Assembly: GCF_029855045.1 (NCBI RefSeq)
Contig: NZ_CP123228.1
Coordinates: forward strand, 5,766,001 to 5,830,000
Direction: 5' to 3'
Length of the DNA: 64,000 bases
Source: Piscinibacter sp. XHJ-5
GTDB lineage: Bacteria > Pseudomonadota > Gammaproteobacteria > Burkholderiales > Burkholderiaceae_C
Shown: positions 43,848 through 59,303 of the stretch, piece by piece
How positions within the stretch are numbered: the first letter of the stretch is position 1
Layout: each line of letters begins with the position of its first letter
The notes under the pieces: model-generated
What the model was told of the DNA's origin: nothing
Databases searched by the model: none
The model's input: only the letters and a program-made list of their open reading frames with translations
Translations under genes and position numbers: made by a program

Positions 43848-43861
43848 TCTTCGCCGACATG

Positions 43862-43889
43862 AAAAAACGCCCGCTGACGCGGGCGTTTT
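43862..43889. terminator. Bidirectional rho-independent terminator
   Basis: An 11-bp stem AAAACGCCCGC (43864-43874) / GCGGGCGTTTT (43879-43889) with a TGAC loop, with A-run before and T-run after. It lies 15 nt past the ctpA stop and ahead of the convergent small gene, so it can serve both strands. Confidence 0.88.
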
Positions 43890-43909
43890 GCTTTGTGCCT
43901 GCCGGCCGA

Positions 43910-44233: not shown

Positions 44234-44261
44234 GTCACTCCTTTGCAGCACGACATCGTTG

Positions 44262-44271
44262 CCTACGTAGG
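44262..44271. promoter_or_regulatory. Perfect palindrome between divergent small gene and moeB
   Basis: CCTACGTAGG is a perfect 10-bp palindrome, 28 nt from one start and 45 nt from the other. Its position fits a shared operator, but the element is short and could be chance. Confidence 0.3.
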
Positions 44272-44304
44272 GGCGATTCGCCGGTGCTCAAGGCCGGGCT
44301 TGGG

Positions 44305-44310
44305 TATGCT
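44305..44310 (+). promoter_or_regulatory. Possible -10 box for moeB, near-leaderless
   Basis: TATGCT ends 6 nt before the moeB ATG, so transcription would begin at or very near the start codon. No ribosome site is seen before this ATG. Confidence 0.35.
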
Positions 44311-44316
44311 GGTCCC

Positions 44317-45069: not shown

Positions 45070-45120
45070 ACGGCCACCACCACCGCCTTGTGGACACGAG
45101 CTGGGGTTAAGCTGCCGCCT

Positions 45121-46050
45121 ATGGCTAAAGAGAAAAACAACGGGCCGGCACAGCGCGGCGAACTGACCGCCCGCAACTTCCCGACCGCTCAGCAGGACGC
45201 GACGATCCAGGCGCCTCCGTCACGCTATGACGGCCCCGAAAGCGCCTACCGCCTGGCCTTCACCGACACGGAGTTCCTGCTGCGCGAAGAGCTGCGCCCG
45301 GTGCGCATGCAGCTGGAGCTGCTGAAGCCCGAGCTGGTGCAAAGCGAGCAGAATATCGAGTCGACCATCGTCATCTTCGGCAGCGCGCGCATCGTGCCGT
45401 CCGACGTGGCGCAGCGCCTGCTGGACGACGCTCAGGCGGCGCAGAACGCGACCGCCCTGCGCATCGCCGAGGCGCACATGGGCATGGCGCGCTACTACGA
45501 CGAGGCGCGGCGCTTCGCTGCCATCGTCACCGAGAAGTCGCGCGGGCTGGCGACGCCGATCTATGTCGTCACCGGCGGCGGTCCCGGCATCATGGAAGCC
45601 GGCAACCGCGGCGCCCACGAAGCCGGCGGCAAGAGCATCGGGCTCAACATCGTGCTGCCGCACGAGCAGGCACCCAATCCGTACATCACGCCGGAGCTGT
45701 GCTTCCAGTTCCACTACTTCGGCCTGCGCAAGATGCACTTCCTGATGCGCTCGATCGGGCTGGTGTGCTTCCCCGGCGGCTTCGGCACGCTCGACGAGAT
45801 GTTCGAGGCGCTCACCCTCATCCAGACCGGGAAGTGCCGGCGCCGGCCCGTCCTGCTGTTCGGGCGCGATTTCTGGACGCGGCTCGTCAATTTCGAACTG
45901 CTGGTCGACACCGGCATGATCAGCGCGATGGACCTCGAGCTGTTCCGCTTCGTCGAGACCGCGGAGCAGGCGTGGGAGATCCTGGAAGCGCACTACGGCT
46001 TCGAGCTGCGCGATACAAGCACGAAGGGCGATCTGGCCAGCAACGTCTGA
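45121..46050 (+). CDS. LOG-family (TIGR00730) nucleotide phosphoribohydrolase-like protein
   Basis: This 309-residue Rossmann-fold protein has the LOG signature GGGPGIMEAGNRGAHEAGG and PGGFGTLDEMFEALTLIQTG. Family members cleave the N-glycosidic bond of nucleoside 5'-monophosphates (cytokinin-activating in plants, PpnN-type in bacteria). An N-terminal extension of about 85 residues before the core (VIFGSARI) is longer than plant-type LOG. The longer in-frame start at 45088 is less likely than ATG 45121. It is 13 nt ahead of the arginase gene. Confidence 0.9.
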   Translation: MAKEKNNGPAQRGELTARNFPTAQQDATIQAPPSRYDGPESAYRLAFTDTEFLLREELRPVRMQLELLKPELVQSEQNIESTIVIFGSARIVPSDVAQRLLDDAQAAQNATALRIAEAHMGMARYYDEARRFAAIVTEKSRGLATPIYVVTGGGPGIMEAGNRGAHEAGGKSIGLNIVLPHEQAPNPYITPELCFQFHYFGLRKMHFLMRSIGLVCFPGGFGTLDEMFEALTLIQTGKCRRRPVLLFGRDFWTRLVNFELLVDTGMISAMDLELFRFVETAEQAWEILEAHYGFELRDTSTKGDLASNV

Positions 46051-46063
46051 ATCCAAAGGCTCC

Positions 46064-46978
46064 ATGAACAAGCAGATCAGCATCATCGGCGCGCCCACCG
46101 ACATCGGCGCGGGCAGCCGCGGCGCCAGCATGGGACCCGAGGCGCTGCGTGTCGCCGACATCGTGCCGGTGCTGCAGGGCCACGGCCTCGAGGTGGTCGA
46201 CCGTGGGAACCTGTCCGGCCCGGCCAACCCGTGGCTGCCGCCATCCGACGGCTACCGCCACCTGGCGGAGGTCGTCGCCTGGAACAAGGCGGTGCACAAC
46301 GCCGTGCATGCCGAGCTCGCACTGGGCCGCCTGCCGATCCTGCTGGGCGGGGACCATTCGCTCGGGCTCGGCTCCATCAGCGCGGTGGCGCGCCACTGCC
46401 GCGAGACCAACCGCAAGCTGCGCATCCTCTGGCTGGACGCGCACGCCGACTTCAACACCAACATCCTCACACCGAGCGGCAATCTGCACGGCATGCCGGT
46501 CGCCTGCCTGTGCGGCCACGGTCCGCAGGAGCTCATCGAGATCGGCGGCCATGTCCCGGCGATCAGCCCGAAGTGGATCCGCCAGATCGGCATCCGCAGC
46601 GTCGACGCCGGCGAGAAGCGGTTCGTGCACGAGATGGACCTCGAGGTCTTCGACATGCGCTACATCGACGAGATGGGCATGCGCCACGCGATGGAACTGG
46701 CGCTGGCGACGCTGGACGCGCACACCCACCTGCACGTGAGCTTCGACGTGGACTTCCTCGACCCCGACGTGGCGCCGGGCGTCGGCACCACCGTCAAGGG
46801 CGGCCCGACCTACCGCGAGGCGCAGCTGTGCATGGAGATGATCGCCGACACCGGCCGGCTCGCCTCGCTCGACGTGATGGAGCTGAACCCGGCGCTGGAC
46901 GTGCGCAACGCCACCGCCGAGGTGGCGGTCGACCTCATCGAGAGCCTGTTCGGCAAGAGCACGCTGATGCGCAAGTAA
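46064..46978 (+). CDS. rocF: Arginase
   Basis: This 304-residue binuclear Mn hydrolase converts arginine to ornithine and urea. Metal ligands are His98 (GGDHS), Asp125, His127 and Asp129 (DAHADFN), and Asp228 and Asp230 (SFDVDFLDP). The C-terminal ELNPALDVRNATAEVAVDL is typical of arginase rather than agmatinase, as is the GNLHGMPVA substrate loop. Length is normal. Expressed with the LOG gene upstream by spacing. Ureohydrolase specificity is well supported. Confidence 0.93.
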   Translation: MNKQISIIGAPTDIGAGSRGASMGPEALRVADIVPVLQGHGLEVVDRGNLSGPANPWLPPSDGYRHLAEVVAWNKAVHNAVHAELALGRLPILLGGDHSLGLGSISAVARHCRETNRKLRILWLDAHADFNTNILTPSGNLHGMPVACLCGHGPQELIEIGGHVPAISPKWIRQIGIRSVDAGEKRFVHEMDLEVFDMRYIDEMGMRHAMELALATLDAHTHLHVSFDVDFLDPDVAPGVGTTVKGGPTYREAQLCMEMIADTGRLASLDVMELNPALDVRNATAEVAVDLIESLFGKSTLMRK

Positions 46979-46984
46979 GCGCAG

Positions 46985-47003
46985 CGGCCTCGCCGCGGGG
47001 CCG
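46985..47003 (+). terminator. Possible terminator after arginase
   Basis: CGGCC (46985-46989) and GGCCG (46999-47003) form a short GC stem followed by TGATTTCGTT. It is weak and lacks a true T-run, but would separate rocF from the DUF4132 operon. Confidence 0.3.
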
Positions 47004-47013
47004 TGATTTCGTT

Positions 47014-47062
47014 CACGCGAGGGCCGCCGATCCCACGTCAAAATGCGCCCCACGCGAGGGGG
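47014..47062 (+). promoter_or_regulatory. Direct repeat and ribosome-site hairpin before the DUF4132 operon
   Basis: CACGCGAGGG occurs at 47014-47023 and again at 47051-47060. The second copy overlaps the GAGGGGG ribosome site (47056-47062), which can also pair with CCCC (47048-47051). GAGGGGG abuts ATG 47063 but has 6-nt spacing to ATG 47069, favouring the latter. This is the only gap before the five-gene operon. Confidence 0.35.
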
Positions 47063-47068
47063 ATGCGC

Positions 47069-50000
47069 ATGCTCAAGTGGGTGGGGAAGCTGCTCGGGGG
47101 AACGTCGGTCGATCTGCCGCCCGATGTGCCATCCGGCTGGGTGCGGTGCCTGGAAGAAGCACTCGAGCCGCTGCGCGCCGCGGACGCCGACCTGGCCCGG
47201 CAGATCCTCGATTTCGTGTGCCGCGGCGAGCCGATCGGCGTGCTGCACACCGCCGCGAAGGGCCCCACCTGCGCCGAAAAGCTGGGCCTCACCTGGCAGG
47301 GACGCAGCGATGCATGGAAGAAGCTGTACCGCGACATCGCGAAGGTTACGCCGCGGGTGCTGCTGCGCTGGGCGCAGCTTCTGGAGGCCGCGGGGCAATC
47401 TCAGTCGCCCGGCTACCAGCTCACGTTCGCCAATGGCGTGCACTGGCCCGAGACGCTGCTGGTCCATGCCAGCGGTGCCGCATTCAACGCCTGGGGCAGC
47501 CATGAGGATCCGCACGCCGACCTGAGCGCCGACGCGATCGAGGCGCTGCTCGTCGAAGGCGGCCTGGCGCCGCACGCGCTGCTCGCGGCCGCCTTCACAA
47601 CGAACGTCAAGCAGGGCTACTGGGGTGGCGGCAATGCCATGAAGGTCGCCAAGCTCACCGGCTACGCCGACTGGCTGGCCAGGCATGTCGGGGATGTCCG
47701 GCCGCTGCTGTCGGCGGCCGGAGCGCAGGAACGCCTGCACATGGTCAAGATGCTCGAGCCCGCCCCGCCGCACGCGCTCGCCGCGCTGGCCAGCGAGCTG
47801 GCAGATTGGGCCACCAGCTCGAGCAAGCAGGTGCGCGCGGCGGCCGAGCCGCTGCTGCGCAAGGTCGCGGCCGAGGGCGTCGTGGCGCTGAAGCATCTGG
47901 CCGCGCAGGCCAAGCCCGAGCAGCGTGTCAACGCGCTGCGGCTGCTCTGGCAGCTGGCCCGCGTGTCCGACGACGAGGCCCTGCGCGCCTTCGCGCGCAG
48001 CACCGCGGAAGCGGACAACGCACCGAGCGCGCAGGCGCTGCTCGCCGAATGGGCAGGCGCCGCATCCCCCACCGTCGAGGCGACCCGCTACGAGTACACG
48101 CTGCCCACGATCGACTGGCGCGACACGCTCACCGATGCGGTCTCGCAGGCACTCGACCGGCTGTGGGAAGACATGAACGCCGGCGTGGAAGAGGTCAACC
48201 GGCAGGGACGCGAGTTCGAGAGGCGCTCGCAGTCCAGCACCTACAAGCACCGTCACACCGACCGGAAGCCTTTCTCGCCGTCCGAGCGGCAGCGCGTGCG
48301 CGACCACCTGGCCGACGACGTCCCGCGAAGCCCCAGGGAACGGGTGCGCGTCGATCGCCTCAGCTACCACGCGCCGCTCATGCCGATGCTGGAGCGCTTC
48401 GCGGCGGCGCCCGGTGTCACGCCTCAGGCGCTGGTGAAGCTGCTGGACGTGCTGGGCCAGCTCGACGCGAGCCATGGCCGCTTCGGCGGCTCGCTCGCCG
48501 TTGCGTTCAACGCGATGCACCGCGCGAGCGGACGTCCCACGCTGCTCGAGCTGCAGCTGCTGCTGGAGCCGCTGGGCCACGGCGCCGAGATGCTCCTGCG
48601 CGAGTGCTGCAACACCTGGGGCCACTCGCTGGCACGCGACTGGAGCGATGCGGCGCAGTGGCCGTTCTTCGCGCACAACGTCGAGCTGCTGCTGCGCTAC
48701 ATGAACCCGACGCTGATGCGCGAGCACTACTGGTTCGACCGCAGCGGGCTGTTCCGCGCCATCGCGACGCTGCCGGCGCCGCCCGATGCCATCGTCAACG
48801 TGCTGTTCGACCTCGCGCTGGGATCGGCCAAGACCGAGCGCGCCCCGGCACAGCAGGCGCTGTCGAACCTCGCGGGCAAGGAGCTTCGCATCACCAACGC
48901 GCTGGCCGACGGCAAGGCCGAGGCGCGCACCGTGGCCGCGCAGTGGCTCGGCGCGCTGAAGCACGCGGCGGCCCAGCCGGCGCTGGAGAAGGCGCTGCTC
49001 AAGGAGAAGAACGACGTCGCCAAGGGCGCCATGCTCGACGCGCTGGAGGCGCTCGGCCAGCCGGTCGAGAAGTACCTCGACCGCAGCGCTCTGCTCAAGG
49101 ACGCCGCCGCCTCGCTCGCCAAGGGACTGCCCAAGGACATCGAGTGGTTTCCCTTCGCCGCGATGCCGCGCGTGCGCTGGGCCGACGATGAGTCGGAAGT
49201 CGACCCCGACGTGCTGCGCGCCTTCGTCGTGCAGGCGACGAAGCAGAAGTCGCCGGAGCCCAATGCGGTGCTGCGCAAGTATTGCCGCATGTTCCACCCG
49301 CGCGACCGCGAGGCCTTCGGCCAGTTCGTGCTCGAGGCGTGGCTGCGCGAGGACGTGAAGCCGATCTCCGCCGAGGAGGCGATGCGGCAGGCGCGGGCTT
49401 CCGCGCAAGGCACGCATGCGGCGATGCAGCGCTATCCGCAGTACTACAAGGACGACGCCAACTTCGGCAAGTCGGTGGAGGAGCTGTACGCGGCCTGCCG
49501 GCCCGGCTTCCTGCGCATGCCGGTGGGTTCGGCGGCGGCGAGCAAGGGCCTGCTGGCGCTGGCCGCGGCCTGCGCCCACGAGCGCGCGGCCCCGGCGGTC
49601 GCACGCTACCTGAAGGAGTACTACGGCACGCGGGCATCGCAGGGCAAGTCGCTGATCGCGATGCTGGCGTGGGTCGAGCATCCCTCGGCAACGCAGCTGA
49701 TGCTGTCCATCGGCAACCGCTTCCGCACCAAGAGCTTCCAGGAAGAGGCGATGAAGCAGGCCGAGGCGCTGGCCGAGCGGCGCGGCTGGTCGGTGGCCGA
49801 GCTGGCCGACCGCACCATCCCCAGCGCCGGCTTCGACGAGACCGGCACGCAGGAGCTGAGCTACGGCCCGCGCACGTTCGTCGTGCGCCTGCTGCCCGAC
49901 TTCAAGCTCGAGCTGCTCAACCCCGACGGCAGGAAGATCGCCGCGCTGCCCGAACCCCGCCAGGACGACGATGCGGACCTCGCCAAGGCGGCGAAGAAGG

Positions 50001-50779
50001 CCTTCTCGTCAGCGCGCAAGGAGATCAAGGGAATCGTCGACCAGCAGACCGAGCGCCTGTACGAGGCGCTGTGCACCGAGCGCGACTGGCGCTACGAGGA
50101 CTGGGAGCTGTACCTCAACCAGCATCCGATCGTGCGGCGGCTGGTCCAGCGCCTGGTGTGGGCGGTGACGCGGGACGGCGGCGTGGTACAGACCTTCCGA
50201 CCGCTGGACGACGGCACGCTGACCGACTGCGACGACAACCCGGTGCACGTCGCCCCCGACGCGCGGGTTCGTGTCGCGCACGACTCGATCCTGAGCGCCG
50301 AAGCGGTCGGGCAATGGCAGCAGCACCTCGCCGACTACGAGATCGCGCCGCTGTTCCAGCAGCTCGGCAAGGGCATCTATGCGCTGCCCGAAGGAAAGTC
50401 GCAGGCCGAGGAGATCGGCGACTTCGAGGGCCATCTGCTGGAGACGTTCGCGCTGCGCGGCCGCGCGCTGAAGCTCGGCTATACCCGCGGCAGCACCGAG
50501 GACGGCGGGTGGTTCACGACCTACGAGAAGCGCTTTCCCACGCTGGGCCTGCAGGCCCTGCTCGAGTTCACCGGCAACCCGCTGCCCGAGCAGAACCGCA
50601 CCGTCGCGCTGCTGAGCCTCTCGTTCGCCAGCCTGCAGCCTGACAGCCATCGCAGCGGCAAGCTCAAGCTCGCCAAGGTGCCCAAGGTGCTGCTGTCCGA
50701 GTGCTACAACGACCTTCGCCTGATCGCCGCCGAGGGCACGGGCTTTCACGCCGACTGGCGCAAGAAGAGCGAGTACTGA
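47069..50779 (+). CDS. DUF4132 protein (YehI/MolR-like), first gene of the MoxR-VWA-SWIM operon
   Basis: This 1236-residue cytoplasmic protein is mostly helical, with HEAT-like stretches rich in Ala/Leu (e.g. residues 220-330 and 590-680). The DUF4132 domain is near residues 905-1090, including RGWSVAELADRTIPSAGFD, YGPRTFVVRLLPDFKLEL and a WRYEDWELYLNQHPIVRRLV block. Size and neighbours match E. coli YehI (once named MolR, about 1200 residues). Function is not established; it is a large scaffold or substrate-binding partner by inference. ATG 47069 is chosen from ribosome-site spacing (47063 and an upstream 47003 are alternatives). Only 3 nt separate it from the ATPase gene. Confidence 0.9.
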   Translation: MLKWVGKLLGGTSVDLPPDVPSGWVRCLEEALEPLRAADADLARQILDFVCRGEPIGVLHTAAKGPTCAEKLGLTWQGRSDAWKKLYRDIAKVTPRVLLRWAQLLEAAGQSQSPGYQLTFANGVHWPETLLVHASGAAFNAWGSHEDPHADLSADAIEALLVEGGLAPHALLAAAFTTNVKQGYWGGGNAMKVAKLTGYADWLARHVGDVRPLLSAAGAQERLHMVKMLEPAPPHALAALASELADWATSSSKQVRAAAEPLLRKVAAEGVVALKHLAAQAKPEQRVNALRLLWQLARVSDDEALRAFARSTAEADNAPSAQALLAEWAGAASPTVEATRYEYTLPTIDWRDTLTDAVSQALDRLWEDMNAGVEEVNRQGREFERRSQSSTYKHRHTDRKPFSPSERQRVRDHLADDVPRSPRERVRVDRLSYHAPLMPMLERFAAAPGVTPQALVKLLDVLGQLDASHGRFGGSLAVAFNAMHRASGRPTLLELQLLLEPLGHGAEMLLRECCNTWGHSLARDWSDAAQWPFFAHNVELLLRYMNPTLMREHYWFDRSGLFRAIATLPAPPDAIVNVLFDLALGSAKTERAPAQQALSNLAGKELRITNALADGKAEARTVAAQWLGALKHAAAQPALEKALLKEKNDVAKGAMLDALEALGQPVEKYLDRSALLKDAAASLAKGLPKDIEWFPFAAMPRVRWADDESEVDPDVLRAFVVQATKQKSPEPNAVLRKYCRMFHPRDREAFGQFVLEAWLREDVKPISAEEAMRQARASAQGTHAAMQRYPQYYKDDANFGKSVEELYAACRPGFLRMPVGSAAASKGLLALAAACAHERAAPAVARYLKEYYGTRASQGKSLIAMLAWVEHPSATQLMLSIGNRFRTKSFQEEAMKQAEALAERRGWSVAELADRTIPSAGFDETGTQELSYGPRTFVVRLLPDFKLELLNPDGRKIAALPEPRQDDDADLAKAAKKAFSSARKEIKGIVDQQTERLYEALCTERDWRYEDWELYLNQHPIVRRLVQRLVWAVTRDGGVVQTFRPLDDGTLTDCDDNPVHVAPDARVRVAHDSILSAEAVGQWQQHLADYEIAPLFQQLGKGIYALPEGKSQAEEIGDFEGHLLETFALRGRALKLGYTRGSTEDGGWFTTYEKRFPTLGLQALLEFTGNPLPEQNRTVALLSLSFASLQPDSHRSGKLKLAKVPKVLLSECYNDLRLIAAEGTGFHADWRKKSEY

Positions 50780-50782
50780 GCC

Positions 50783-51883
50783 ATGAGCCAACCCCAGACC
50801 GGCGTGCTGCGCGCGCCCGCCGAGCAGGTGCATGCCGAGGAGCTCGCCCGCCTCGCCGAACGCGACGGCAATGCGCGCCCGCCGGGCTGGCGGCTGTCGC
50901 CCCGCGCGGTGCGCAGCTTCATCCTCGGCGACGACAAGCTGGGCGTGCGCCGCAAGTTCTTCGGCGACGATCCGCTGATCGACCGCTGCATCGTCACGCT
51001 GATGAGCAACCGCGGGCTGCTGCTGGTCGGAGAGCCGGGCACCGCGAAGTCGATGCTGTCGGAGCTGCTGGCCGCGGCCATCTCGCACGATTCGGGCTGC
51101 ACCATCCAGGGCACGGCGGGCACCACCGAGGACCAGATCAAGTACTCGTGGAACTACGCATTGCTGCTCAACGAGGGACCCACGCCACGCGCGCTGGTGC
51201 GCGGCCCGCTGTACGAGGCCATGCGCACCGGCCGCGTCTGCCGCTTCGAGGAGATCACGCGCGTGCAGCCGGAGATCCAGGACTGCCTGATCAGCCTGCT
51301 GTCCGACAAGGTGCTGCATGTGCCGGAGCTGACCGGTGCCGACGCCAACGTCTTCGCCGCCCGCGGATTCAACGTGCTGGCCACGGCCAACATCCGCGAC
51401 CGCGGCGTGCACGAGATGTCCAGCGCCCTGAAGCGGCGCTTCAACTTCGAGACCGTCAAGCCGATCGCCGACCGCAAGCTCGAGACGCAGCTCGTGCGCG
51501 AGCAGACCGAACAGCTGCTGCGGCACGCGCAGGTCGACGTGGAGCTCGCGCCCGACGTGGTGGACCTGCTGGTGACCGCGTTCAACGACCTGCGCCAGGG
51601 TGTCACCGGCGAGGGCACGGTGGTGGAGAAGCCCACCGCCGTCATGTCGTCCGCGGAGGCGGTGGCCGTCGGCTATGCGGCCTGCCTGGACGCGCACTAC
51701 CTCGGCAACGGCACGGTGGGCGGCGAGCATGTCGCGCGCCAGCTGATCGGCACGGTGCTGAAGGACAACCCCGACGACGGCAAGAAGCTGCGCCACTACT
51801 TCGACGTCGTCGTGCGGCCGCGCGCGCAGCGCCACAAGCAGTGGCAGCGCGTGCTGGAGGCGCGCAAGGAACTCGAGCGCTGA
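50783..51883 (+). CDS. MoxR-type AAA+ ATPase (YehL-like)
   Basis: This 366-residue AAA+ ATPase has Walker A GEPGTAKS (residues 83-90), an extended ISHDSGCTIQGTAGTTEDQI loop, a Walker B position that reads CRFEEITR (Glu-Glu in place of the usual Asp-Glu), a sensor-1 VLATANIRDRG and arginine-finger-like SSALKRRFNFE. Its N-terminal 60 residues are a distinct helical cap. It is more like the E. coli YehL group than the MoxR protein at 33027. It should be the motor of the operon, working with the VWA protein two genes downstream. Confidence 0.92.
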   Translation: MSQPQTGVLRAPAEQVHAEELARLAERDGNARPPGWRLSPRAVRSFILGDDKLGVRRKFFGDDPLIDRCIVTLMSNRGLLLVGEPGTAKSMLSELLAAAISHDSGCTIQGTAGTTEDQIKYSWNYALLLNEGPTPRALVRGPLYEAMRTGRVCRFEEITRVQPEIQDCLISLLSDKVLHVPELTGADANVFAARGFNVLATANIRDRGVHEMSSALKRRFNFETVKPIADRKLETQLVREQTEQLLRHAQVDVELAPDVVDLLVTAFNDLRQGVTGEGTVVEKPTAVMSSAEAVAVGYAACLDAHYLGNGTVGGEHVARQLIGTVLKDNPDDGKKLRHYFDVVVRPRAQRHKQWQRVLEARKELER

Positions 51884-51890
51884 GCCCGCG

Positions 51891-54329
51891 ATGCAGAACG
51901 CAGCCGAGCTGCGCACCGCCTTCCGGCAGCTCGTCGGCGACGCGCTGATCCTGTTCCCGGTGCGCCACCACAGTCCCGCCTGCGCGCACCACCTGCTGCA
52001 CATCTTCGAGCAGCGCCGCCCGAGCGTCGTGCTGGTGGAGGGCCCGCGCTCCTTCACGCCGCTGGTGCCGCTGCTGGCGCATGCGCAGGCGCGGGCGCCC
52101 TTCGCCGTCTACGCCTATGCGGTGCAGCGTGCCGCCGGCGACACGCCGGAGCGCCGCAGGGCCGCCTACTACCCGTTCTGCGACTACTCGCCCGAGCTGG
52201 TGGCCCTGCGCGAGTCGGCGCGGCGCGGCATCCCCGCGAGCTTCATCGACCTCGACTTCGCCGAGCAGTTCGTGCTCGACCGCGACGACGCCGGCGAAGA
52301 GCAGGGCTCACTGCTGGCCGAGCATCACCTGAGACGCAGCGACTACCTGAAGGCGCTGGCGCAGCAGCTCGGCTGCCGCGACCACGAGGAGTTGTGGGAG
52401 CACCTGTTCGAGCTGCCGCACCGCGACACGTCCACGGAGGACTTCGTCGCGCGCATCGCCACCTATTGCCACCTCGCCCGTCAGGACGCGACCGAGGACG
52501 GGCATGCGAGGGACGGCACCCACGAACGCGAGGCCGAGATGGCCTGGCACATTCGCACCGCGCTGGCGCAGCGCGCGCCGCAAGCCGGTCCGGTGCTGGT
52601 GGTGCTCGGCGGCTATCACGCCGTCGCGATGCCGCGGCTCATCCAGGCCGAGGTCGCGCGCCCGGCCGTTTCGCGCGACACGCTGGCCGACCACCACGCG
52701 TCGGTGATCCGCTACAGCTTCGACCGCCTCGAGCGGCTCAACGGCTACGCCTCCGGCATGACCGCGCCGGCGTGGCACCAGGCGCTGTGGGAGCGCGCCC
52801 AGGCGATGGATCGCGCCGGCATCGCCGGCAGCGAGCGCCTGCGCCGCGAAGTGGCGCTGACGATGCTGTTCGACATCGCGCTCGAGCTGCGCCAGCGCCA
52901 TCAGCTGGCGCTGCCGGTGCCTGCGCTGTCGGCCGCCTACGAGCAGGCGCTGCGCCTCGCGCAGCTGCGCGGACGCTGCGGGCCCGCCCGCGACGACGTG
53001 CTCGATGCGGTGACGAGCTGCTTCATCAAGGGGCAGGCCGATGCCGATGGCGTGCTGGTGCAGCGCGCCGCGCAGCGTGTGCTCGGCGGCGTCGCACTCG
53101 GCAAGGTTCCCGCGGGGGCCGGCGTGCCGCCGCTGGTGCGCGACTTCGAAGCACGCGCGCGGCGCCAGCGGTTGAGGATGGACGACACCGAACGCCGCCG
53201 CGCGACGCTGGACCTCTACCGGCGTCCCGAGCACCGCGTGACCAGCCGGCTGTTCCACGGCCTCGTGCTGCTCGAGGTGCCCTTCGGCGTGCGCACCGCG
53301 GGACCCGACTTCGTGAACGGCATCGGGCTCGAGCGGCTGCAGGAACACTGGGAGTACGACTACTCGCCGCTCACCGAGGCCGCGCTGGTCGAGGCGTCGG
53401 TGTACGGCGTGACGCTGCCGCTGGCGGTGGCCAGCCGCTTCGCCCAGCGCATGCAGCAGCTGGAGGCCGACGGCCAGGCGCGCAACGCCCGCGTCGCGGC
53501 GTCCAGCGCCGTGCAGGCCTGCGTGCTCGGCCTGCACGACCACCTGCCGCGCGTGCTCCAGGCCTTGCGCGTGGCGATCAACGAAGACGCCGCCTTCGAT
53601 GCGGTGGCCGCCGCCGCCGGCACGCTGGGGTTGCTGTGGGAGTCGCGCGAGCCGCTGGAGGCGCGCGACGTGCCCGAGGTCATGCCGCTGCTGCAGGCGG
53701 CCTACGAACGGTCGATCTACCTGGGCCGCGACCTGCGCGGCGTGGCCGACGACCGCGCCGGCGACATCGTGCAGGCGCTGCAGCAATTGCGCGAGCTGCT
53801 GGTCGGCGCGTGCGGGCAGTCGCTGGATGCCGGCCTGTACTGGGACATGGTCGGCGCGCTGCGGCATGCCAACGACTCGGCGCTGCTGCGCGGCGCATCG
53901 GCCGGCCTGCTGTACAGCGCCGGCCGGCTGGGCGAAGACGCGCTGGGCGCCGAGCTGAACGGCCACCTGAGCGGCATGGCGCAGCCGCGCGACGCGGTCG
54001 CCTACCTGCGCGGGCTCACGCAGACCGCCCGCGAGGCGACGTGGCAGCAGCCGGCCCTGCTGCAGGTGCTCGACGTCCTGCTCGCGCAATGGGACGAGCC
54101 GGCCTTCGTCGCCGTACTGCCGGAGTTGCGGCTGGCCTTCGCGGCGATGACCCCGAACGAGACCGACCGCATCGCCGGCGCCGTGGCCGGGCTGCATGGC
54201 ATGGGCGATCTCGGCCCGCTGGTCCACCGCGACCTCGCGGAGGACGAGGTGCGCGCGCACCTGGCGCTCAGCGAGACGCTGCGCGAGGTGCTCGCGGCGG
54301 ACGGCCTTTCCGACTGGCTGGTGGCATGA
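51891..54329 (+). CDS. DUF5682 protein (YehM-like)
   Basis: This 812-residue soluble protein has an N-terminal LFPVRHHSPACAHHLL (RHHSP at 25-29), then VVLVEGPRSF (EGP at 50-52) and a GGYHA motif near residue 240, which together mark DUF5682. The spacing of His and Glu motifs resembles hydrolase folds of the TraB/ChaN/EreA type, but this is only a suggestion. The C-terminal 500 residues are helical and Ala/Leu rich, including TLGLLWESREPLEARDVPEV. It matches the E. coli YehM in position and size (about 760). The stop overlaps the VWA start by 4 nt. Confidence 0.88.
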   Translation: MQNAAELRTAFRQLVGDALILFPVRHHSPACAHHLLHIFEQRRPSVVLVEGPRSFTPLVPLLAHAQARAPFAVYAYAVQRAAGDTPERRRAAYYPFCDYSPELVALRESARRGIPASFIDLDFAEQFVLDRDDAGEEQGSLLAEHHLRRSDYLKALAQQLGCRDHEELWEHLFELPHRDTSTEDFVARIATYCHLARQDATEDGHARDGTHEREAEMAWHIRTALAQRAPQAGPVLVVLGGYHAVAMPRLIQAEVARPAVSRDTLADHHASVIRYSFDRLERLNGYASGMTAPAWHQALWERAQAMDRAGIAGSERLRREVALTMLFDIALELRQRHQLALPVPALSAAYEQALRLAQLRGRCGPARDDVLDAVTSCFIKGQADADGVLVQRAAQRVLGGVALGKVPAGAGVPPLVRDFEARARRQRLRMDDTERRRATLDLYRRPEHRVTSRLFHGLVLLEVPFGVRTAGPDFVNGIGLERLQEHWEYDYSPLTEAALVEASVYGVTLPLAVASRFAQRMQQLEADGQARNARVAASSAVQACVLGLHDHLPRVLQALRVAINEDAAFDAVAAAAGTLGLLWESREPLEARDVPEVMPLLQAAYERSIYLGRDLRGVADDRAGDIVQALQQLRELLVGACGQSLDAGLYWDMVGALRHANDSALLRGASAGLLYSAGRLGEDALGAELNGHLSGMAQPRDAVAYLRGLTQTAREATWQQPALLQVLDVLLAQWDEPAFVAVLPELRLAFAAMTPNETDRIAGAVAGLHGMGDLGPLVHRDLAEDEVRAHLALSETLREVLAADGLSDWLVA

Positions 54330-55447
54330 AGACGCTGCAGCGCTGGCGCCTCGTGCTCGGCAAGTACGCCGACCGCCGGTTCGCGCCGGGCGCGGGCGGT
54401 CTGGGCGCGGCGTACAGCCGCATGGACCGCGCGCTCGACTACCTGTACGGGCGCGAGTACCAGGGCCGCGGCCTGCGCAAGGACATCGGGCCCGGCTCGC
54501 TCGACGCGTCGCAGCTCACGCTGACCACATGGCTCGGCGAGGTGCGGGAGCTGTTCCCCAACGACACCGCCGAGGTCATCGAGAAGCACGCGCTCGACCG
54601 CTACGGCATGACGGAGCTGGTCACCGACCCCAGGACGCTGGAGCGCCTGCAACCCAGCCAGGACCTGCTGCGAACCCTGCTCGGACTGCGCGGCCACCTC
54701 CGGGGCGAGGTGCTGCACGTGGCGCGGCGAATCGTCCGCCAGGTGGTCGAGGAGCTCAAGCGCAAGCTGGAATCCGAAGTGCGCCAGGCGCTCGCCGGCC
54801 GCCTGAACCGCTTTCGCCACTCGCCGCTCGCGCTGTCGCAGAACTTCGACGCGCACGGCACCGTGCGCCGCAACCTGAAGCACTACGACCGGGACCGGCG
54901 GCAGCTCGTCGTCGAGCAGGCGCTGTTCTTCGAGCGCAACAGCCGCCGCCTGCCGTGGGACATCATCCTGTGCGTGGACCAGAGCGGCAGCATGGCCGAC
55001 TCGGTGATCCACAGCGCGGTGATGGCCGGCATCCTGGCGGCGCTGCCGGCGTTTCGCGTGAAGATCGTCGTCTTCGACACCAGCATCGTCGACCTGTCCG
55101 GGCATGCCGACGACCCGGTCGAGATCCTGATGAGCGTGCAGCTCGGCGGGGGCACCGACATCGCGCAGGCGGTGCGCTACTGCACGCAGCTGGTCGAGAA
55201 CCCGCACCGGACCGTGCTCGTGCTCGTCACCGACTTCTGCGAAGGCGCCCCGCCCGGGGAGCTGGTGCGCGCGGTGAAGGCGCTGGCCGAAGCTCGCGTC
55301 AAGCTCCTGGGACTGGCCGCGCTCGACGGGCAGGCGAACCCGGTGTACGACAAGGCGATGGCGGAGCGTCTGGCCGCCTGCGGCATGGAGATCGCGGCGC
55401 TCACGCCGCAGCGTCTCGCGCATTGGCTGGTGAAGGTGGTGTCGTGA
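54326..55447 (+). CDS. VWA domain protein (YehP-like)
   Basis: This 373-residue protein has an N-terminal helical domain (1-205) followed by a von Willebrand A domain (about 210-373). Unlike the VWA protein at 34813 its MIDAS is complete: Asp218-x-Ser220-x-Ser222 (VDQSGSM), Thr277 (GGGTD) and Asp303 (VTDFCEG), so it should bind Mg2+ and a protein ligand. It would couple the upstream AAA+ ATPase to its clients. It is overlapped by 4 nt with DUF5682 upstream and by GTGA with the SWIM gene downstream. E. coli YehP has the same size and place. Confidence 0.92.
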   Translation: MKTLQRWRLVLGKYADRRFAPGAGGLGAAYSRMDRALDYLYGREYQGRGLRKDIGPGSLDASQLTLTTWLGEVRELFPNDTAEVIEKHALDRYGMTELVTDPRTLERLQPSQDLLRTLLGLRGHLRGEVLHVARRIVRQVVEELKRKLESEVRQALAGRLNRFRHSPLALSQNFDAHGTVRRNLKHYDRDRRQLVVEQALFFERNSRRLPWDIILCVDQSGSMADSVIHSAVMAGILAALPAFRVKIVVFDTSIVDLSGHADDPVEILMSVQLGGGTDIAQAVRYCTQLVENPHRTVLVLVTDFCEGAPPGELVRAVKALAEARVKLLGLAALDGQANPVYDKAMAERLAACGMEIAALTPQRLAHWLVKVVS

Positions 55448-57549
55448 CGGCGGGTCTGAAGGACCGCCTGCTCGAGCAGCTGCGCCGCTTCGACGAGGAT
55501 GCGTTCGTCGCGCTGGCCAACAAGGGCCTGCTGCGGCGCGCGCAGAAGGACCTGGAGAAGCAGGCCGCCACCATCAGCGCCGAAGCGCAGGACCGGCTGG
55601 AACTCCGGTTCGGCGAGCACACCATCCGCTTCGATGCGCGCGGTCCGGCGCAGGCGAGCTGCAGCTGCCCGGCGGCGGGCGTCTGCCAGCACATCCTCGC
55701 CGCCATGATCAGCCTGCAGCGCATGGCGGCGCCGGCCGCGGCCGACGACGATGCGCCGTCCGCAGCGGGCGGGAGCAACGCGCAGGCCGACCTGTCGGCC
55801 GCGCTCCTGGCCATTCCGCAGGCCGCACTGGAGCGCCATGCCGGCGCGGCCGGCTACCGCTGGGCGTGGCAGTTCGTGCAGGACCTCGACCTGCCGGACG
55901 ACCTCGGGCTCGGCGGCGACACGCACCTGGTCATCGACCTCAAGCGGCCACGACTGCGCCTGCGCTACATGGGCGGCGGCGTGGACGCGCTGATCCCCGA
56001 CACCGAAACGAAGCAGCTCGCGAAGTACCAGGTGGCCGCCGTGCTGGCGTGTCGCCAGGCGCTCGGCGCCGACGTGATGCCTCCGCCGGCGCGGGCCAAG
56101 CCGAAGACCGCGGCGCTGGACCTCGGCAAGGACCACGCGCTGCCGGAGGACGTCGACAACGCCGAAGCCGCGTCGCGGGTCAGGCTGCGTGCCAGCGTCC
56201 AGCAGGTGCTGCAGGACTGCCTCCAGCTCGGCTTGTCGCACCTGTCGCCGGCCATGCGCGATCGCTTCGCGACGCTCGCGGTATGGGCGCAAGGCGCCCA
56301 GTACCACCGTCTCGCGCTGCTGCTGCGACGGGTCGCCGACCACGTCGAGCTGCTGCTCGAGCGCGCGGCCGGCGCGGACGAGCATCGCCTGTTCGACGAG
56401 CTCGCCCTGGTCCACGGACTGCTGGGGGCACTGGCCAGCGCCGACGCGAAAGGCGCCGCGCCGGCGCACCTCGTGGGCCGTTCGCGCAGCGAGTACGCCG
56501 CCGCGTCGACGCTGGAGCTGATCGGTGTGGGCGCCAGCGCCTGGCGATCCGCCTCCGGCTACGTCGGGCTGACGATGATGTTCTGGTCGCCCGAGGAGCA
56601 GCGCTTCTTCTCGTGCACCGACGCGCGGGCCGAGCTGCAGCGCGGGTTCGATCCCCTTGCCCGCTACAAGGCGCCCGGGCCCTGGAGCGGCCTGGGCGCC
56701 CCGCAGCAGGCCACCGGCCGCCGTGTGCGACTGGTGTCGGCGCAAGTCAATGCGCAAGGCCGCCTGTCGGGCAGCGACACGACGCACGTCACGCTGCAGC
56801 CGGCCGGCGCGCTGGCAACGCACCTGCAGCCGATCGCCGACTGGGCCGATCTCCTCGAGCGCCGCGCACACGCACGTCGCAGCCTGCTCGCCGAGCCGCA
56901 GCCGCTGCAGGACTGGGTGACGCTGGCGCCGGCGCGCTTCGGCGCCGCCCGCTTCGACCCGATCCGACAGACGCTCGCATGGCCGCTCGTCGACGCGGCC
57001 GATCGGGTGCTGCACGCCGAGCTCGTGTACTCGCCGTTCACCGAGCACGCCATCCAGCGCATCGAACGCCTGCAGGCGGATTCGCTCCCGCCGGGCACGC
57101 TGCTGATCGGGCGGCTGCGGCCCGCGGACGGTGCGCCGGTGCTGGAGCCGTTGAGCCTGGTGCGAGGCGGGTCCGACAACCAGATCGATGCCCTTCAGTT
57201 CGACGACGCGCCCGCGAGCTCCTGGGCTTCCAAGTGGCGGCAGCTGATGGGCCGCGGCGCAGAGGCCCCGGCGTTGGACGCGATGGCGAGCGCGGCGGCA
57301 GCGCCTCGCGACCTGCTGGCCCTGCGCCACTGGCTGCGCGAACGGGCCGAACGTGGCCTGGCGGAGGATGCCGTTGCCGCCCTCGACCGCGACCGGGAGG
57401 CGCACCGACAGCGCTGCGAGGCCGCCGGCCTGACGGCGCTGGCGCAGGTGCTGGGCCGGCCGGTGTGCGCTTCCCAGTGGCTGGCCGCGAACTACGTCTG
57501 CCTGCAGACGGAGCGCCTGCTCGGCCGCGGCGACGACGCGCCGGCGTGA
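55444..57549 (+). CDS. SWIM zinc-finger protein (YehQ-like)
   Basis: This 701-residue protein has a SWIM-type zinc finger at its N-terminus: Cys73, Cys75, Cys81 and His83 (CSCPAAGVCQH, CxCx5CxH). SWIM fingers bind DNA or protein. A linker of Ala/Asp follows (residues 95-115), then a large helical/beta domain without motifs I recognise. The start is GTG at 55444, overlapping the VWA stop (GTGA); no upstream ATG fits. It matches E. coli YehQ (about 650 residues, SWIM domain) in order and size. It is the last gene of the operon. Confidence 0.9.
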   Translation: MTAGLKDRLLEQLRRFDEDAFVALANKGLLRRAQKDLEKQAATISAEAQDRLELRFGEHTIRFDARGPAQASCSCPAAGVCQHILAAMISLQRMAAPAAADDDAPSAAGGSNAQADLSAALLAIPQAALERHAGAAGYRWAWQFVQDLDLPDDLGLGGDTHLVIDLKRPRLRLRYMGGGVDALIPDTETKQLAKYQVAAVLACRQALGADVMPPPARAKPKTAALDLGKDHALPEDVDNAEAASRVRLRASVQQVLQDCLQLGLSHLSPAMRDRFATLAVWAQGAQYHRLALLLRRVADHVELLLERAAGADEHRLFDELALVHGLLGALASADAKGAAPAHLVGRSRSEYAAASTLELIGVGASAWRSASGYVGLTMMFWSPEEQRFFSCTDARAELQRGFDPLARYKAPGPWSGLGAPQQATGRRVRLVSAQVNAQGRLSGSDTTHVTLQPAGALATHLQPIADWADLLERRAHARRSLLAEPQPLQDWVTLAPARFGAARFDPIRQTLAWPLVDAADRVLHAELVYSPFTEHAIQRIERLQADSLPPGTLLIGRLRPADGAPVLEPLSLVRGGSDNQIDALQFDDAPASSWASKWRQLMGRGAEAPALDAMASAAAAPRDLLALRHWLRERAERGLAEDAVAALDRDREAHRQRCEAAGLTALAQVLGRPVCASQWLAANYVCLQTERLLGRGDDAPA

Positions 57550-57557
57550 GGCGCGAC

Positions 57558-57575
57558 GCCGCCGCTGCCGGCGGC
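57558..57575. terminator. Hairpin after the SWIM gene
   Basis: GCCGCCG / CGGCGGC, a 7-bp perfect stem with a CTGC loop, lies 9 nt past the SWIM stop and before the convergent lipoprotein gene. There is no T-run, so termination is uncertain. Confidence 0.4.
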
Positions 57576-57585
57576 TTGCCCACCG

Positions 57586-58011
57586 TCAGGTGCAGCTCAC
57601 GCTCACGTCGTGCGTGTGACCGGCGTTCGAGGACGTCACCGTGACGGTGGCTCCCGCCGTCTTCAGCGACGCCAGCTGCGCAGGCGTGAGGGTGATGGTG
57701 TGGTTGTGGTCCGAGACGCCCTGGATGTTGTAGGTCATGCTCACCGTCGAATCACGATCGGCCGGCGGGATGGTGACCGAATGCCCATGGTTGCCGGTGA
57801 TCACGGTGTCGCGACAGCTCACCATGGGCGCCGGAGCCGGCGGCGTGGGAGCAGGCGGTGTCGGCGCGGGCGGTGTCGGCGCGGGCGTCGGGGTCGGTGA
57901 CGGCGGCGGTGAGTCGCCGCCCCCGCCCCCGCAGCCTTGGATGCTGACCGCGGCGGCGCTGCCCGCAAGGCTCGCCAAGGTGGCCAGGAACTGCTTGCGC
58001 GTCATCGACAT
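57586..58011 (-). CDS. Small lipoprotein with Pro-rich linker and HxH motifs
   Basis: This 141-residue protein has a lipoprotein-type signal (MTRKQFLATLASLAGSAA) ending in a lipobox-like QGC (Cys27) before GGGGG. A Pro/Thr linker with a repeated PAPTPP unit (residues 35-62) leads to a beta-rich domain with three HxH sites (NHGHS, DHNHT, GHTHD) that could bind metal. A Cys at each end of the domain (VSCRD and VSCT) may form a disulfide. AAGGAG lies 7 nt before ATG 58011. Function unknown. It is divergent from the next lipoprotein gene across a 191-nt gap in which I see no further feature. Confidence 0.78.
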   Translation of the reverse strand: MSMTRKQFLATLASLAGSAAAVSIQGCGGGGGDSPPPSPTPTPAPTPPAPTPPAPTPPAPAPMVSCRDTVITGNHGHSVTIPPADRDSTVSMTYNIQGVSDHNHTITLTPAQLASLKTAGATVTVTSSNAGHTHDVSVSCT

Positions 58012-58202
58012 CGTCGTCTCCTTCGGCCTTCGGGCCTGTGGTGCGCACCCTGACGTGGCGGTCTTCCGCCTGGGGCTCGATGTGTTTACGGCCGCGCGCT
58101 GCGGGCCATTCCATCGACCGCGGTGTTTCGGGTTGTGACCGCATGACCACGGCAAGCCACCCTGCGCCGTTCACTCCTCACACGCCATCGCAGGAGACTC
58201 CC

Positions 58203-58913
58203 ATGGGTGCGCTTCACCGGCTCGTTTCCATATGCGGCCTGGTCATGCTCGCTGCCTGCGGGGGCGGCGGCTCCGACGACGGCGGGGTCATGCCGCCCGC
58301 CGACAACTTCGCCGTCCGCACCGCCTGGGCCAACTTCCTGACAGCCTCGCGCACCTGGTCGGCGGCCGGCGTCGCCAGCAACGGCCTCGGCTACGACATC
58401 ACCATCGGCGTGCAGCCGGGCGCCGCGTCCGTCATGCCGATCAGCGGGATCGCGGCCGCACGCAGCGACACCGCACTGCGAGTGCGCGAGAACGGCGTGA
58501 TCGTGAGCGATGCCCTCAGCGAGACCTTCTTCGATGCAGCCACCTTGCAGCTGGTAGGCGTGCGGCTCACGGCCACCGGCGGGTCCGGCGTGTGCAGCCT
58601 GGCCAGCACGGCGGCGGTGCCGCCGACGACCGCGCAGATCGGCACCGGCGGCACGCTGGCCACGCTGGACGAGCGCAACGGCTGCCTCGCCGGCTCGGCC
58701 ACTCTCGGCACCGCGACCATCGGCTGGTCACTGGAGTTCGAGGCTGGAACGAGCTACTTCTGCATCAACTCGACCGAGCACGACCTCGGCGGCAGCGTGC
58801 TCTCCACCGAGTCCGACTGCGTGCAGGTGAGCCCCGACGGCTCGCTGGGCGCACGGGCGCGGATCACCATCACGCAGCCTGGCAGCGGCTTCACGCTGAC
58901 GGCGCGCGGCTGA
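58203..58913 (+). CDS. Putative lipoprotein of unknown function
   Basis: This 236-residue protein has a signal sequence (residues 1-18, HRLVSICGLVMLAAC) with a lipobox LAAC and a Gly/Asp-rich anchor (GGGGSDDGG). The rest is Gly/Thr/Ser rich and probably beta-structured, with Cys pairs (GVCSLAS, NGCLAGS, SYFCINS, ESDCVQV) that could form disulfides. I recognise no family. AGGAG sits 6 nt before ATG 58203; a longer in-frame ATG at 58143 would place the signal peptide internally. It is convergent with DUF1232. Confidence 0.72.
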   Translation: MGALHRLVSICGLVMLAACGGGGSDDGGVMPPADNFAVRTAWANFLTASRTWSAAGVASNGLGYDITIGVQPGAASVMPISGIAAARSDTALRVRENGVIVSDALSETFFDAATLQLVGVRLTATGGSGVCSLASTAAVPPTTAQIGTGGTLATLDERNGCLAGSATLGTATIGWSLEFEAGTSYFCINSTEHDLGGSVLSTESDCVQVSPDGSLGARARITITQPGSGFTLTARG

Positions 58914-58928
58914 TCGCTGGAGCTGCCC

Positions 58929-59303
58929 TCAGAAGAACACCAGCCAGGCGATCAGCGCGAGCAGCGCGACCCAGACCAGCGCAATGCCGACCGCGCCCAT
59001 CCACAGGCGCGGCAGCTTCTGCGCCGACTGCTCCGCCTCGTGCAAGCAGGCCTCCCAGAGGGGCTTGGGCGTGAGTCGCACCACGAGCGCGATGCCCAGC
59101 GGCACGATGACGATGTCGTCCAGCATCCCCAGCACCGGCACGAAGTCCGGGATGAGGTCGATCGGGCTGGCCGCGTAGGCCACCACGGCGATCGCCGTCC
59201 ATTTGGCGAGCCGCGGCGTCTGCGGATGCTTGAAGAGCTTCCACAGCGCGACGAGGTAGGTGAGCATCCGCGCGCGCGCACCGGCGACGACCAGCTTGCT
59301 CAT
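58929..59303 (-). CDS. DUF1232 (YkvA-like) membrane protein
   Basis: This 124-residue protein carries the DUF1232 core [34 protein letters not shown] segment (residues 40-75, key SPIDLIPDF and LDDI) plus a second hydrophobic segment at the C-terminus (about 103-123). It is an inner-membrane protein of unknown function. Its start overlaps the stop of the helicase gene by 4 nt, so it is the third gene of the antiporter-helicase operon. Confidence 0.9.

What the first reader, a model, noticed from the sequence alone, without database searches (positions are those of the whole stretch)
47069..57549. Five-gene DUF4132-MoxR-DUF5682-VWA-SWIM operon: the window's best candidate for an uncharacterised system
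Five genes run on one strand with gaps of 3 and 7 nt, then ATGA and GTGA overlaps. The parts are an AAA+ ATPase, a MIDAS-complete VWA protein, a SWIM zinc-finger protein and two very large partners (DUF4132, DUF5682). From memory this equals the E. coli yehI-yehL-yehM-yehP-yehQ set in content and order, whose function is unsettled (YehI was once linked to molybdate as MolR). The set is a self-contained machine: motor, metal-dependent adaptor, Zn-finger targeting protein and two client or effector-size proteins. Inference: a stress, conflict or protein-remodelling system. It has no obvious link to its neighbours.
Basis: partly seen in the sequence, partly recalled or inferred. Interest (0 to 1): 0.75.

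Follow-up and report, generated by a model that had tools for sequence, protein, structure and literature searches.

The report
Widespread ATPase machine with hidden hydrolase
Five neighbouring genes of unknown function, also present in E. coli, are kept together in very different bacteria, and one of the 'unknown' proteins looks like an enzyme of the Tiki/TraB hydrolase kind that an ATP-driven motor may control.

Summary
Five same-strand genes (47069-57549) encode DUF4132, a YehL-type MoxR ATPase, DUF5682, a CoxE-type VWA protein and a SWIM protein, matching E. coli molR/yehI-yehL-yehM-yehP-yehQ. Starting from MoxR alone, the 80 best relatives kept (ten named phyla) all carry DUF5682. Of 59 loci with long flanks, 56 have MoxR, DUF5682, VWA and SWIM and 51 have all five. 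The large partner varies: DUF4132 (0-4 copies) or DUF5691. Each of the 12 genomes with DUF5682 among 299 Pseudomonadota has at least one of these. New here: the N-terminal ~250 residues of DUF5682 resemble the TIKI superfamily (TraB/ChaN/Ere). Profile scores are nearly double the best of 60 shuffles. His/Glu/Arg/His motifs align and are invariant in 76 of 76. Ere-type structures are four of the top six fold hits, but weakly (E 0.1-0.26). Best reading: a MoxR-VWA machine gating a TIKI-type hydrolase on a HEAT-repeat scaffold. A DNA-damage link is reported for E. coli molR and for Deinococcus DUF4132/WGR genes, but no damage box is clearly enriched upstream of 92 operons and none lies at the window. 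Substrate unknown.

The parts
47069..50779 (+). DUF4132 protein (MolR/YehI kin), 1236 aa; conserved DUF4132 domain at residues 954-1138; proposed scaffold/sensor
   Evidence: Pfam PF13569 4.6e-43; HEAT_2 in 24 of 42 and WGR in 7 of 42 members scanned, neither reported for this one
50783..51883 (+). MoxR-type AAA+ ATPase, YehL kind, 366 aa: motor
   Evidence: AAA_5 5.6e-36; 41-55% identical to the 9 other rows of alignment A1; GEPGTAKS Walker-type segment
51891..54329 (+). DUF5682 protein, 812 aa: N-terminal (about residues 1-285) TIKI-like hydrolase-type domain, then a long mostly helical region; proposed catalytic part
   Evidence: PF18934 4.8e-102; AF2 pLDDT 91.3; hhalign to ChaN 86% and TraB 77%, controls at or below 1.3%; R25 H26 E50 R213 G240 H243 invariant in 76 of 76; fold search weak but Ere-led
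54326..55447 (+). VWA protein of CoxE type, 373 aa, complete MIDAS: metal-dependent adaptor of the ATPase
   Evidence: VWA_CoxE 1.4e-50; MIDAS residues 72 of 72; ATGA overlap
55444..57549 (+). SWIM zinc-finger protein, 701 aa (GTG start): proposed targeting subunit
   Evidence: PF04434 3.4e-4; CxC..CxH and R32 invariant in 67 of 67; GTGA overlap
46984..47004 (+). terminator-like hairpin between the arginase gene and the operon
   Evidence: 1 found against a shuffle mean of 0.2; pattern match only

Best explanation
A five-protein ATP-driven machine in which a MoxR ring (YehL type) and its VWA/MIDAS partner control a TIKI-superfamily hydrolase (the N-terminal domain of DUF5682). DUF4132 (or DUF5691 in other lineages) is a large repeat-type scaffold that presents the target, and the SWIM protein, like the WGR domain on some DUF4132 proteins, is a candidate nucleic-acid or protein targeting element. 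ATP hydrolysis would load or unlock the hydrolase so that it cuts a peptide or ester bond in a target, as a damage or stress response in at least some lineages. Shown by computation: gene set, strict linkage, conserved motifs, TIKI-like profile. Inferred: physical complex, hydrolase activity, ATP gating, substrate, and the damage role.
For: MoxR-seeded scan: DUF5682 present in 80 of 80 kept loci, adjacent in 78; of 59 well-flanked loci, 56 have the core four and 51 all five; 390 of 393 family hits lie on the MoxR strand; median gaps between matched regions 38, 1 and 2 nt. DUF5682 N-terminus: hhalign scores 49.2 (ChaN) and 44.7 (TraB) against maxima of 26.9 and 23.5 in 60 block shuffles, 77-90% over six settings; motif-on-motif alignment; over 59 members the Pfam families matched by most members after DUF5682 are ChaN (7), TraB (6) and DUF5694 (4), all weak; Ere-type 2rad, 6xcs, 6xcq, 3b55 are ranks 1, 3, 4 and 6 of the fold search. 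H26/E50/H243 and probably R213 fit the His-Glu pair, second His and basic residue described for TIKI enzymes (PMC6254334 passages) and are invariant in 76 of 76; 16 of 76 keep the Gly of a GxxH first motif. MoxR proteins mostly work with VWA cofactors and mature dedicated complexes (PMC3893208 passages). Damage link: molR listed as LexA-regulated (PMC11039860, PMC3978071 passages); a LexA-like site just before the first DUF4132 gene of E. coli; D. radiodurans DUF4132 and WGR genes strongly up on DdrO depletion (PMC8533742 passage).
Against: No Foldseek hit reaches E 0.001 (best 0.098, TM about 0.3); rank 2 there is an unidentified Tetrahymena complex IV chain, and the full-length model finds mostly helical-repeat proteins. 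The EreA profile match fails (0.7%; 0.1-1.8% over settings), and a smaller 10-row TraB alignment gives only 17% over 49 columns. The Glu two residues before the first His of the 2His/2Glu motif is absent (Val, Ile or Leu in 76 of 76), and the first-motif Gly is Pro in 59 of 76, the window included. No damage-type box is clearly enriched upstream of 92 operons: found/expected 1/0.5, 0/0.3, 1/0.8, 0/0.0, 1/0.6 (the strict patterns miss the E. coli site too). With the looser CTG-N10-CAG, 5 of 26 proteobacterial loci have an upstream site, only two scoring 13 or more of 20, and sites as good or better occur elsewhere in some loci; none is upstream in the window. Complex formation was not tested.
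Confidence: 0.45

Rival explanations
1. Cofactor-insertion or enzyme-maturation machine: like CoxD-CoxE, NorQ-NorD or Mg-chelatase, the MoxR-VWA pair matures a metalloenzyme, and the old MolR-molybdate link is real.
For: The VWA is CoxE-type; CoxD, NorQ and MoxR examples are maturation or activation factors (PMC3893208 passages); molR was named for molybdate use (title in the reference list of PMC7824862; that paper not read); PMC8533742 says DUF4132 may be involved in molybdopterin biosynthesis (passage).
Against: No metalloenzyme stands out among the 25 largest neighbour clusters printed; the window's ThiF/MoeB-like neighbour has no match in 98 related loci; molybdate genes were not differentially expressed along with the D. 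radiodurans genes; does not explain an invariant hydrolase-type site in DUF5682.
Confidence: 0.25
2. Anti-phage or other conflict system related to the MoxR-vWA ternary systems, with DUF5682 as toxic effector.
For: MoxR-vWA pairs are the core of described ternary conflict systems (PMC7159879 passages) and vWA-MoxR-VMAP sets occur near CRISPR loci (PMC10910872 passages); DUF5682 is patchy in Pseudomonadota (12 of 299); the window's five flanking proteins tested match none of 18 related loci, a same-genus one included; scaffolds are duplicated and exchangeable.
Against: No PADLOC match better than E 0.016; bpMoxR match below its cut-off and no VMAP-type partner found by Pfam; the ternary-system paper's main text has no SWIM, YehL or DUF5682; yehL-Q in 5,311 of 5,426 E. 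coli genomes; no defence gene cluster stands out in the printed neighbour clusters; one phage record of 50,697.
Confidence: 0.2
3. DUF5682 has a TIKI-like fold but is a binding protein, not an enzyme (as ChaN binds haem), and the machine is a pure chaperone or disassembly motor.
For: The strongest profile match is ChaN (86%); the first-motif Glu is missing; all five solved chains matching the MoxR profile at E 1e-8 or better are midasins, remodelling motors (role recalled).
Against: His, Glu, Arg and second His are all invariant (76 of 76), more than binding alone usually keeps (inference).
Confidence: 0.1

Closest known systems
E. coli molR/yehI-yehL-yehM-yehP-yehQ (YehL subfamily of MoxR)
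   Same: Same five families, same order and strand for the shared genes; YehL named as one of seven MoxR subfamilies (PMC3893208 passage).
   Different: E. coli has two tandem DUF4132 genes, the first with WGR and a LexA-like site, and a small gene before yehL; the window has one DUF4132, no WGR match and no such site upstream.
MoxR-vWA ternary conflict systems (VMAP, iSTAND, beta-propeller)
   Same: MoxR plus vWA core with a further large component; CoxD-CoxE proposed as ancestor (PMC7159879 passages).
   Different: Further components are a TIKI-like DUF5682, SWIM and a repeat scaffold; bpMoxR match under its cut-off; the terms SWIM, YehL, DUF5682 do not occur in that paper's main text.
TIKI superfamily (TraB, ChaN, Ere, RRSP)
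   Same: His/Glu pair, Arg and C-terminal GxxH motif in the same order in DUF5682.
   Different: First motif reads PVRH in the window and 59 of 76 rows have Pro (16 have Gly); no Glu before the first His; fused to a large helical region and tied to an ATPase; Ere (PF05139) profile match fails.
RavA-ViaA
   Same: MoxR plus VWA partner; the VWA weakly matches the ViaA model (3.6e-5, 23 bits against a cut-off of 500).
   Different: RavA and ViaA genes form their own operon (PMC3893208 passage); no DUF5682, SWIM or DUF4132 is described there.

Membership tests
E. coli yeh gene set | Five families together in one operon | tested here: met
   order DUF4132-MoxR-DUF5682-VWA-SWIM in both
E. coli yeh gene set | LexA-like site before the first gene | tested here: not met
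   none upstream in the window; a regulatory trait, not a part that defines the machine
MoxR AAA+ ATPase, YehL subfamily | MoxR-type AAA core and close identity to YehL | tested here: met
   AAA_5 5.6e-36; 50% identity to E. coli YehL in A1
VWA MoxR cofactor (CoxE type) | VWA_CoxE domain with complete MIDAS | tested here: met
TIKI superfamily | Profile relation to known members | tested here: met
   ChaN 86%, TraB 77%, controls at or below 1.3%, shuffles at most 4.9%; but EreA 0.7% and a small TraB set 17%
TIKI superfamily | 2His/2Glu active-site motif plus basic residue | tested here: inconclusive
   2 His, 1 Glu and Arg aligned and invariant; the Glu before the first His is absent in 76 of 76
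TIKI superfamily | Parallel beta-sheet core fold | tested here: inconclusive
   Ere-type chains are 4 of the top 6 hits but with E 0.098-0.26, TM about 0.3
TIKI superfamily | Hydrolase activity | not testable with these tools
   needs purified protein
MoxR-vWA ternary conflict systems | System-specific MoxR and VMAP, iSTAND or beta-propeller partner | tested here: not met
   bpMoxR 21.9 bits, cut-off 27; no such partner among the five by Pfam
CoxD-CoxE / chelatase type maturation system | Dedicated metalloenzyme encoded alongside | tested here: inconclusive
   none stands out in the 25 largest neighbour clusters printed, but not every cluster was printed or annotated

The most novel reading that the evidence does not exclude
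A new class of ATP-gated hydrolase: bacteria of at least ten phyla share a MoxR-VWA machine whose constant partner is a cytoplasmic TIKI-superfamily protease, aimed by interchangeable repeat scaffolds with nucleic-acid-binding modules, acting as a regulated protease that answers DNA damage or invading nucleic acid. To my knowledge it would be the first TIKI enzyme run by an AAA+ motor (not searched beyond).
Probability: 0.25. Interest if true: 0.85.

Novelty: new variant of a known kind. Interest (0 to 1): 0.62.

Why it matters
E. coli K-12 genes without a settled function (yehL, yehM, yehP, yehQ with molR/yehI) become one testable machine with a named candidate active site. The name DUF5682 occurs in no paper of the searched library, so the TIKI assignment gives a first concrete handle. 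The spread over ten named phyla, with the ATPase-DUF5682 pair in 80 of 80 kept loci, says the function is general and old or often transferred, not a species quirk.

Tried and rejected
Full-length DUF5682 fold search: helical-repeat proteins dominate, uninformative; repeated with the N-terminal domain. Sequence searches of PDB: DUF5682 gave no significant hit, single (best E 0.32) or profile (best 0.17); DUF4132 only HEAT-type chains, mostly designed alphaReps; the SWIM profile's best hit was a designed protein at E 0.009; a 10-row TraB profile found no TIKI-type chain, so the Tetrahymena chains at ranks 2, 5 and 8 could not be identified.

Accessory gene hunt: 864 non-core ORFs clustered by blastp; of the 25 largest clusters printed, only two have members inside a core span: a 4-locus Bacillota cluster at or just past the SWIM end (1 member inside) and a 2-locus pair that one search shows to be DUF5691. 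The largest (17 loci) has none inside. Small unnamed genes do occur in single loci (E. coli, Deinococcus, Hymenobacter).

General SOS control: not supported as a family-wide trait.

Corrections made on the way. One search took wrong-strand ORFs for L004, L007, L016 and L018, so its identity table and conserved columns are not used (redone). The first VWA count (52 of 59) allowed one family per ORF; corrected to 56 of 59. The DUF5691 profile included a SWIM-DUF5691 fusion, so first ORFs labelled DUF5691 there are SWIM proteins. One search had one flank query out of frame; redone with all five in frame, still no match.

DUF5691 as a relative of the DUF4132 repeat region: only 29.5% (other pairs 0.1-0.2%), a hint, not claimed. 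Rfam at 43000-60000: nothing at gathering threshold.

Alignments were picked for diversity: A2 window + 58 of 75 eligible DUF5682, A5 window + 55 of those 58, A3 window + 52 of 66 SWIM, A4 window + 41 of 71 DUF4132. Sequences under length limits or with X were left out first.
Full report
WHAT IS THERE. The window is part of a 6.65 Mb single-contig genome. Between 47069 and 57549 five genes lie on the + strand: DUF4132 (47069-50779), MoxR ATPase (50783-51883), DUF5682 (51891-54329), CoxE-type VWA (54326-55447) and SWIM (55444-57549), with gaps of 3 and 7 nt and two start-stop overlaps. The genome has one DUF5682 match. A terminator-like hairpin lies between the upstream arginase gene and the set, and G+C content is within the window's range.

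RELATION TO E. COLI. An E. coli record shows metG, a WGR+DUF4132 gene, a second DUF4132 gene, a small gene, then yehL, yehM, yehP, yehQ. The yehL-Q stretch matches in 5,311 of 5,426 complete E. coli genomes, 5,155 of them over at least 80% of the query; the two DUF4132 genes match in 5,371 of 5,426, 4,682 over at least 80%. So the set is near-universal there.

LINKAGE TEST WITHOUT SELECTING FOR IT. I searched species-representative genomes with the MoxR alignment alone. DUF5682 is in 80 of 80 and adjacent in 78; the exceptions are L061 (about 1 kb apart) and L102 (about 4 kb). Across all 80, VWA is in 72, SWIM in 69 and DUF4132 in 59, contigs of any length included; of the 59 loci with at least 7.5 kb before and 8 kb after MoxR, VWA is in 56, SWIM in 56 and DUF4132 in 51. 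Three of the 59 (L072, L102, L121) show only MoxR and DUF5682. DUF4132 ORFs per locus in these 59: none in 8, one in 31, two in 12, three in 7, four in 1 (a broken gene could count twice). Order varies: same-strand DUF4132 lies before MoxR in 17 of 18 Pseudomonadota and 9 of 9 Actinomycetota loci that have it, after MoxR in 17 of 24 Bacillota.

A SECOND ARCHITECTURE. Other DUF5682 loci carry SWIM, DUF5691, MoxR, DUF5682 and VWA, with SWIM and DUF5691 in one ORF in Hymenobacter; in one (L037) about 4 kb separate MoxR and DUF5682. The zinc motif is present in 9 of 10 such loci; the tenth contig is only 5.8 kb. Of 299 Pseudomonadota genomes, 12 have DUF5682, 10 have DUF4132 and 5 have DUF5691 over its cut-off, with 2 more below it. 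Eight of the 10 and all 5 are among the 12, and each of the 12 has one or both; Fisher p 1.5e-11 and 4e-8 (relatedness not corrected). Two genomes (G007, G200) have DUF4132 without DUF5682. So the heart is MoxR-DUF5682, nearly always with VWA and SWIM, plus an exchangeable large partner.

DUF5682 LOOKS LIKE A TIKI-SUPERFAMILY HYDROLASE. Aligned members keep R25, H26, E50, E102, D120, E174, R213, M217, G240 and H243 in 76 of 76. Pfam scans of 59 members one by one (E up to 1) give, after DUF5682, ChaN in 7 (best E 0.036), TraB in 6 (0.12) and DUF5694 in 4 (0.0088); the other families shown match 1 or 2 members. Profile comparison of residues 1-300 gives ChaN 86.3% and TraB 76.7%; VWA, MoxR, SWIM, DUF4132, the DUF5682 C-terminal part and the reversed profile give 0.1-1.3%; EreA gives 0.7%. 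Accepted kin score 93.8% (TraB-ChaN), 82.6% (ChaN-EreA) and 5.3% (TraB-EreA) by the same method. Six settings keep TraB and ChaN at 77-90%; 60 block shuffles reach at most 4.9% against either. With a 10-row TraB alignment the match falls to 17% over 49 columns, still pairing the last two motifs. The alignment sets LFPVRHHSP on the first His motif, VLVEG on the Glu strand, REAEMA on the TraB RN motif and GGYH on the second GxxH. Models are confident (pLDDT 91). In the fold search with the N-terminal domain, 2rad, 6xcs, 6xcq and 3b55 (Ere-type) are ranks 1, 3, 4 and 6, but with E 0.098-0.26 and TM about 0.3, so the fold is suggested, not proven. Passages of PMC6254334 describe Bcr135 (3B55) as TIKI/Ere kin, the His-Glu pair, the second His and a conserved basic residue. 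DUF5682 has candidates for all of these, invariant, but lacks the Glu two residues before the first His in 76 of 76; the Gly of the first motif is kept in 16 of 76 and is Pro in 59, the window included.

THE OTHER PARTS. DUF4132 members show HEAT_2 in 24 of 42 and WGR in 7 of 42; the window's protein shows neither. WGR is called a DNA-binding domain of MolR-like proteins in PMC7824862 (passage). The MoxR profile's solved relatives at E 1e-8 or better are all midasins (5 of 5). VWA and SWIM metal-site residues are invariant.

REGULATION. PMC11039860 and PMC3978071 (passages) list molR among LexA-regulated or SOS genes of E. coli, and the E. coli locus carries AACTGGATAAAATTACAGGG just before the first DUF4132 start. 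PMC8533742 (passage) reports DUF4132 and WGR genes of D. radiodurans strongly induced on DdrO depletion; whether those genes sit beside a MoxR-DUF5682 set was not tested. Against a general rule: five damage-box patterns upstream of 92 operons give 1, 0, 1, 0 and 1 matches against 0.5, 0.3, 0.8, 0.0 and 0.6 expected (the strict patterns also miss the E. coli site). The looser CTG-N10-CAG is upstream in 5 of 26 proteobacterial loci, scoring 13 or more of 20 only in E. coli and L039, while two other loci hold sites of 16 elsewhere; the window has none upstream.

HOW IT MOST LIKELY WORKS. MoxR proteins act with VWA cofactors as chaperone-like factors for dedicated complexes (PMC3893208 passages). 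Since DUF5682 is the one protein never missing beside this MoxR in the 80 loci, I infer that it is the dedicated partner: a hydrolase-type N-terminal domain whose helical C-terminal part would dock on the motor, with VWA as metal-dependent bridge and DUF4132/DUF5691 and SWIM supplying targets. My estimates: one machine 0.95; DUF5682 is TIKI kin 0.8; it is catalytic 0.6; ATP-gated hydrolysis is the function 0.45; damage response is general 0.25.

KNOWN OR NEW. The genes are known by name; no paper found gives the set a function: DUF5682 0 papers; DUF4132 3, two seen in passages; two or more yeh names 6 listings, of which one E. coli and one Shigella genome paper, the rest unrelated by title (listings only); YehL with MoxR 4, one seen in passages; mixed terms 18, 15 listed. 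Most subscription papers and preprints are not in the library, and the 1990 molR paper was not read. A quick tree of 75 DUF5682 proteins plus the window needs 16 phylum changes against a minimum of 9, with warnings on letter make-up and 14 of 73 branches open; and none of the window's five flanking proteins tested has a match in 18 related loci, the same-genus one included, or in the 80 survey loci. This suggests transfer but does not prove it.

Noticed in passing
L102:11175-14750: An ORF that by eye begins like a UvrD-type helicase sits between MoxR and DUF5682 in a Lachnospiraceae MAG; one of two loci of 80 where the pair is not adjacent.
   Followed up: no
MT835988.1 (hits H51, H52): The only phage record of 50,697 with MoxR and DUF5682 matches is a 14 kb unannotated faecal 'Bacteriophage sp.' contig; possibly bacterial DNA.
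   Followed up: no
L041: Four DUF4132 ORFs, two on each side of MoxR-DUF5682, in a genome of the window's family.
   Followed up: no
L037: In a DUF5691-type locus about 4 kb separate DUF5682 from MoxR; contents not read.
   Followed up: no
window 44209-45069: MoeB/ThiF-like adenylyltransferase (read by eye) three genes upstream of the MolR-type gene; tempting for a molybdenum link, but no match in 98 related loci.
   Followed up: yes
window 57586-58155, - strand: Small lipoprotein-like ORF with a proline-rich linker and a His-rich end (read by eye), just after the operon on the other strand.
   Followed up: no
L039, about 110 bases before DUF4132: Near-perfect LexA-like palindrome TACTGATTAAATAATCAGTA in a genome of the window's family.
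   Followed up: partly
L021 (CP088875.1): A 393 kb E. coli plasmid record carries the chromosomal metG-yeh-bts stretch; 2 plasmid places among 5,332 in the E. coli collection.
   Followed up: no
PMC9334617 (passages): A resistance transposon interrupts the DUF4132 region in 184 isolates of one E. coli ST131 branch, so that region seems dispensable in that lineage.
   Followed up: no
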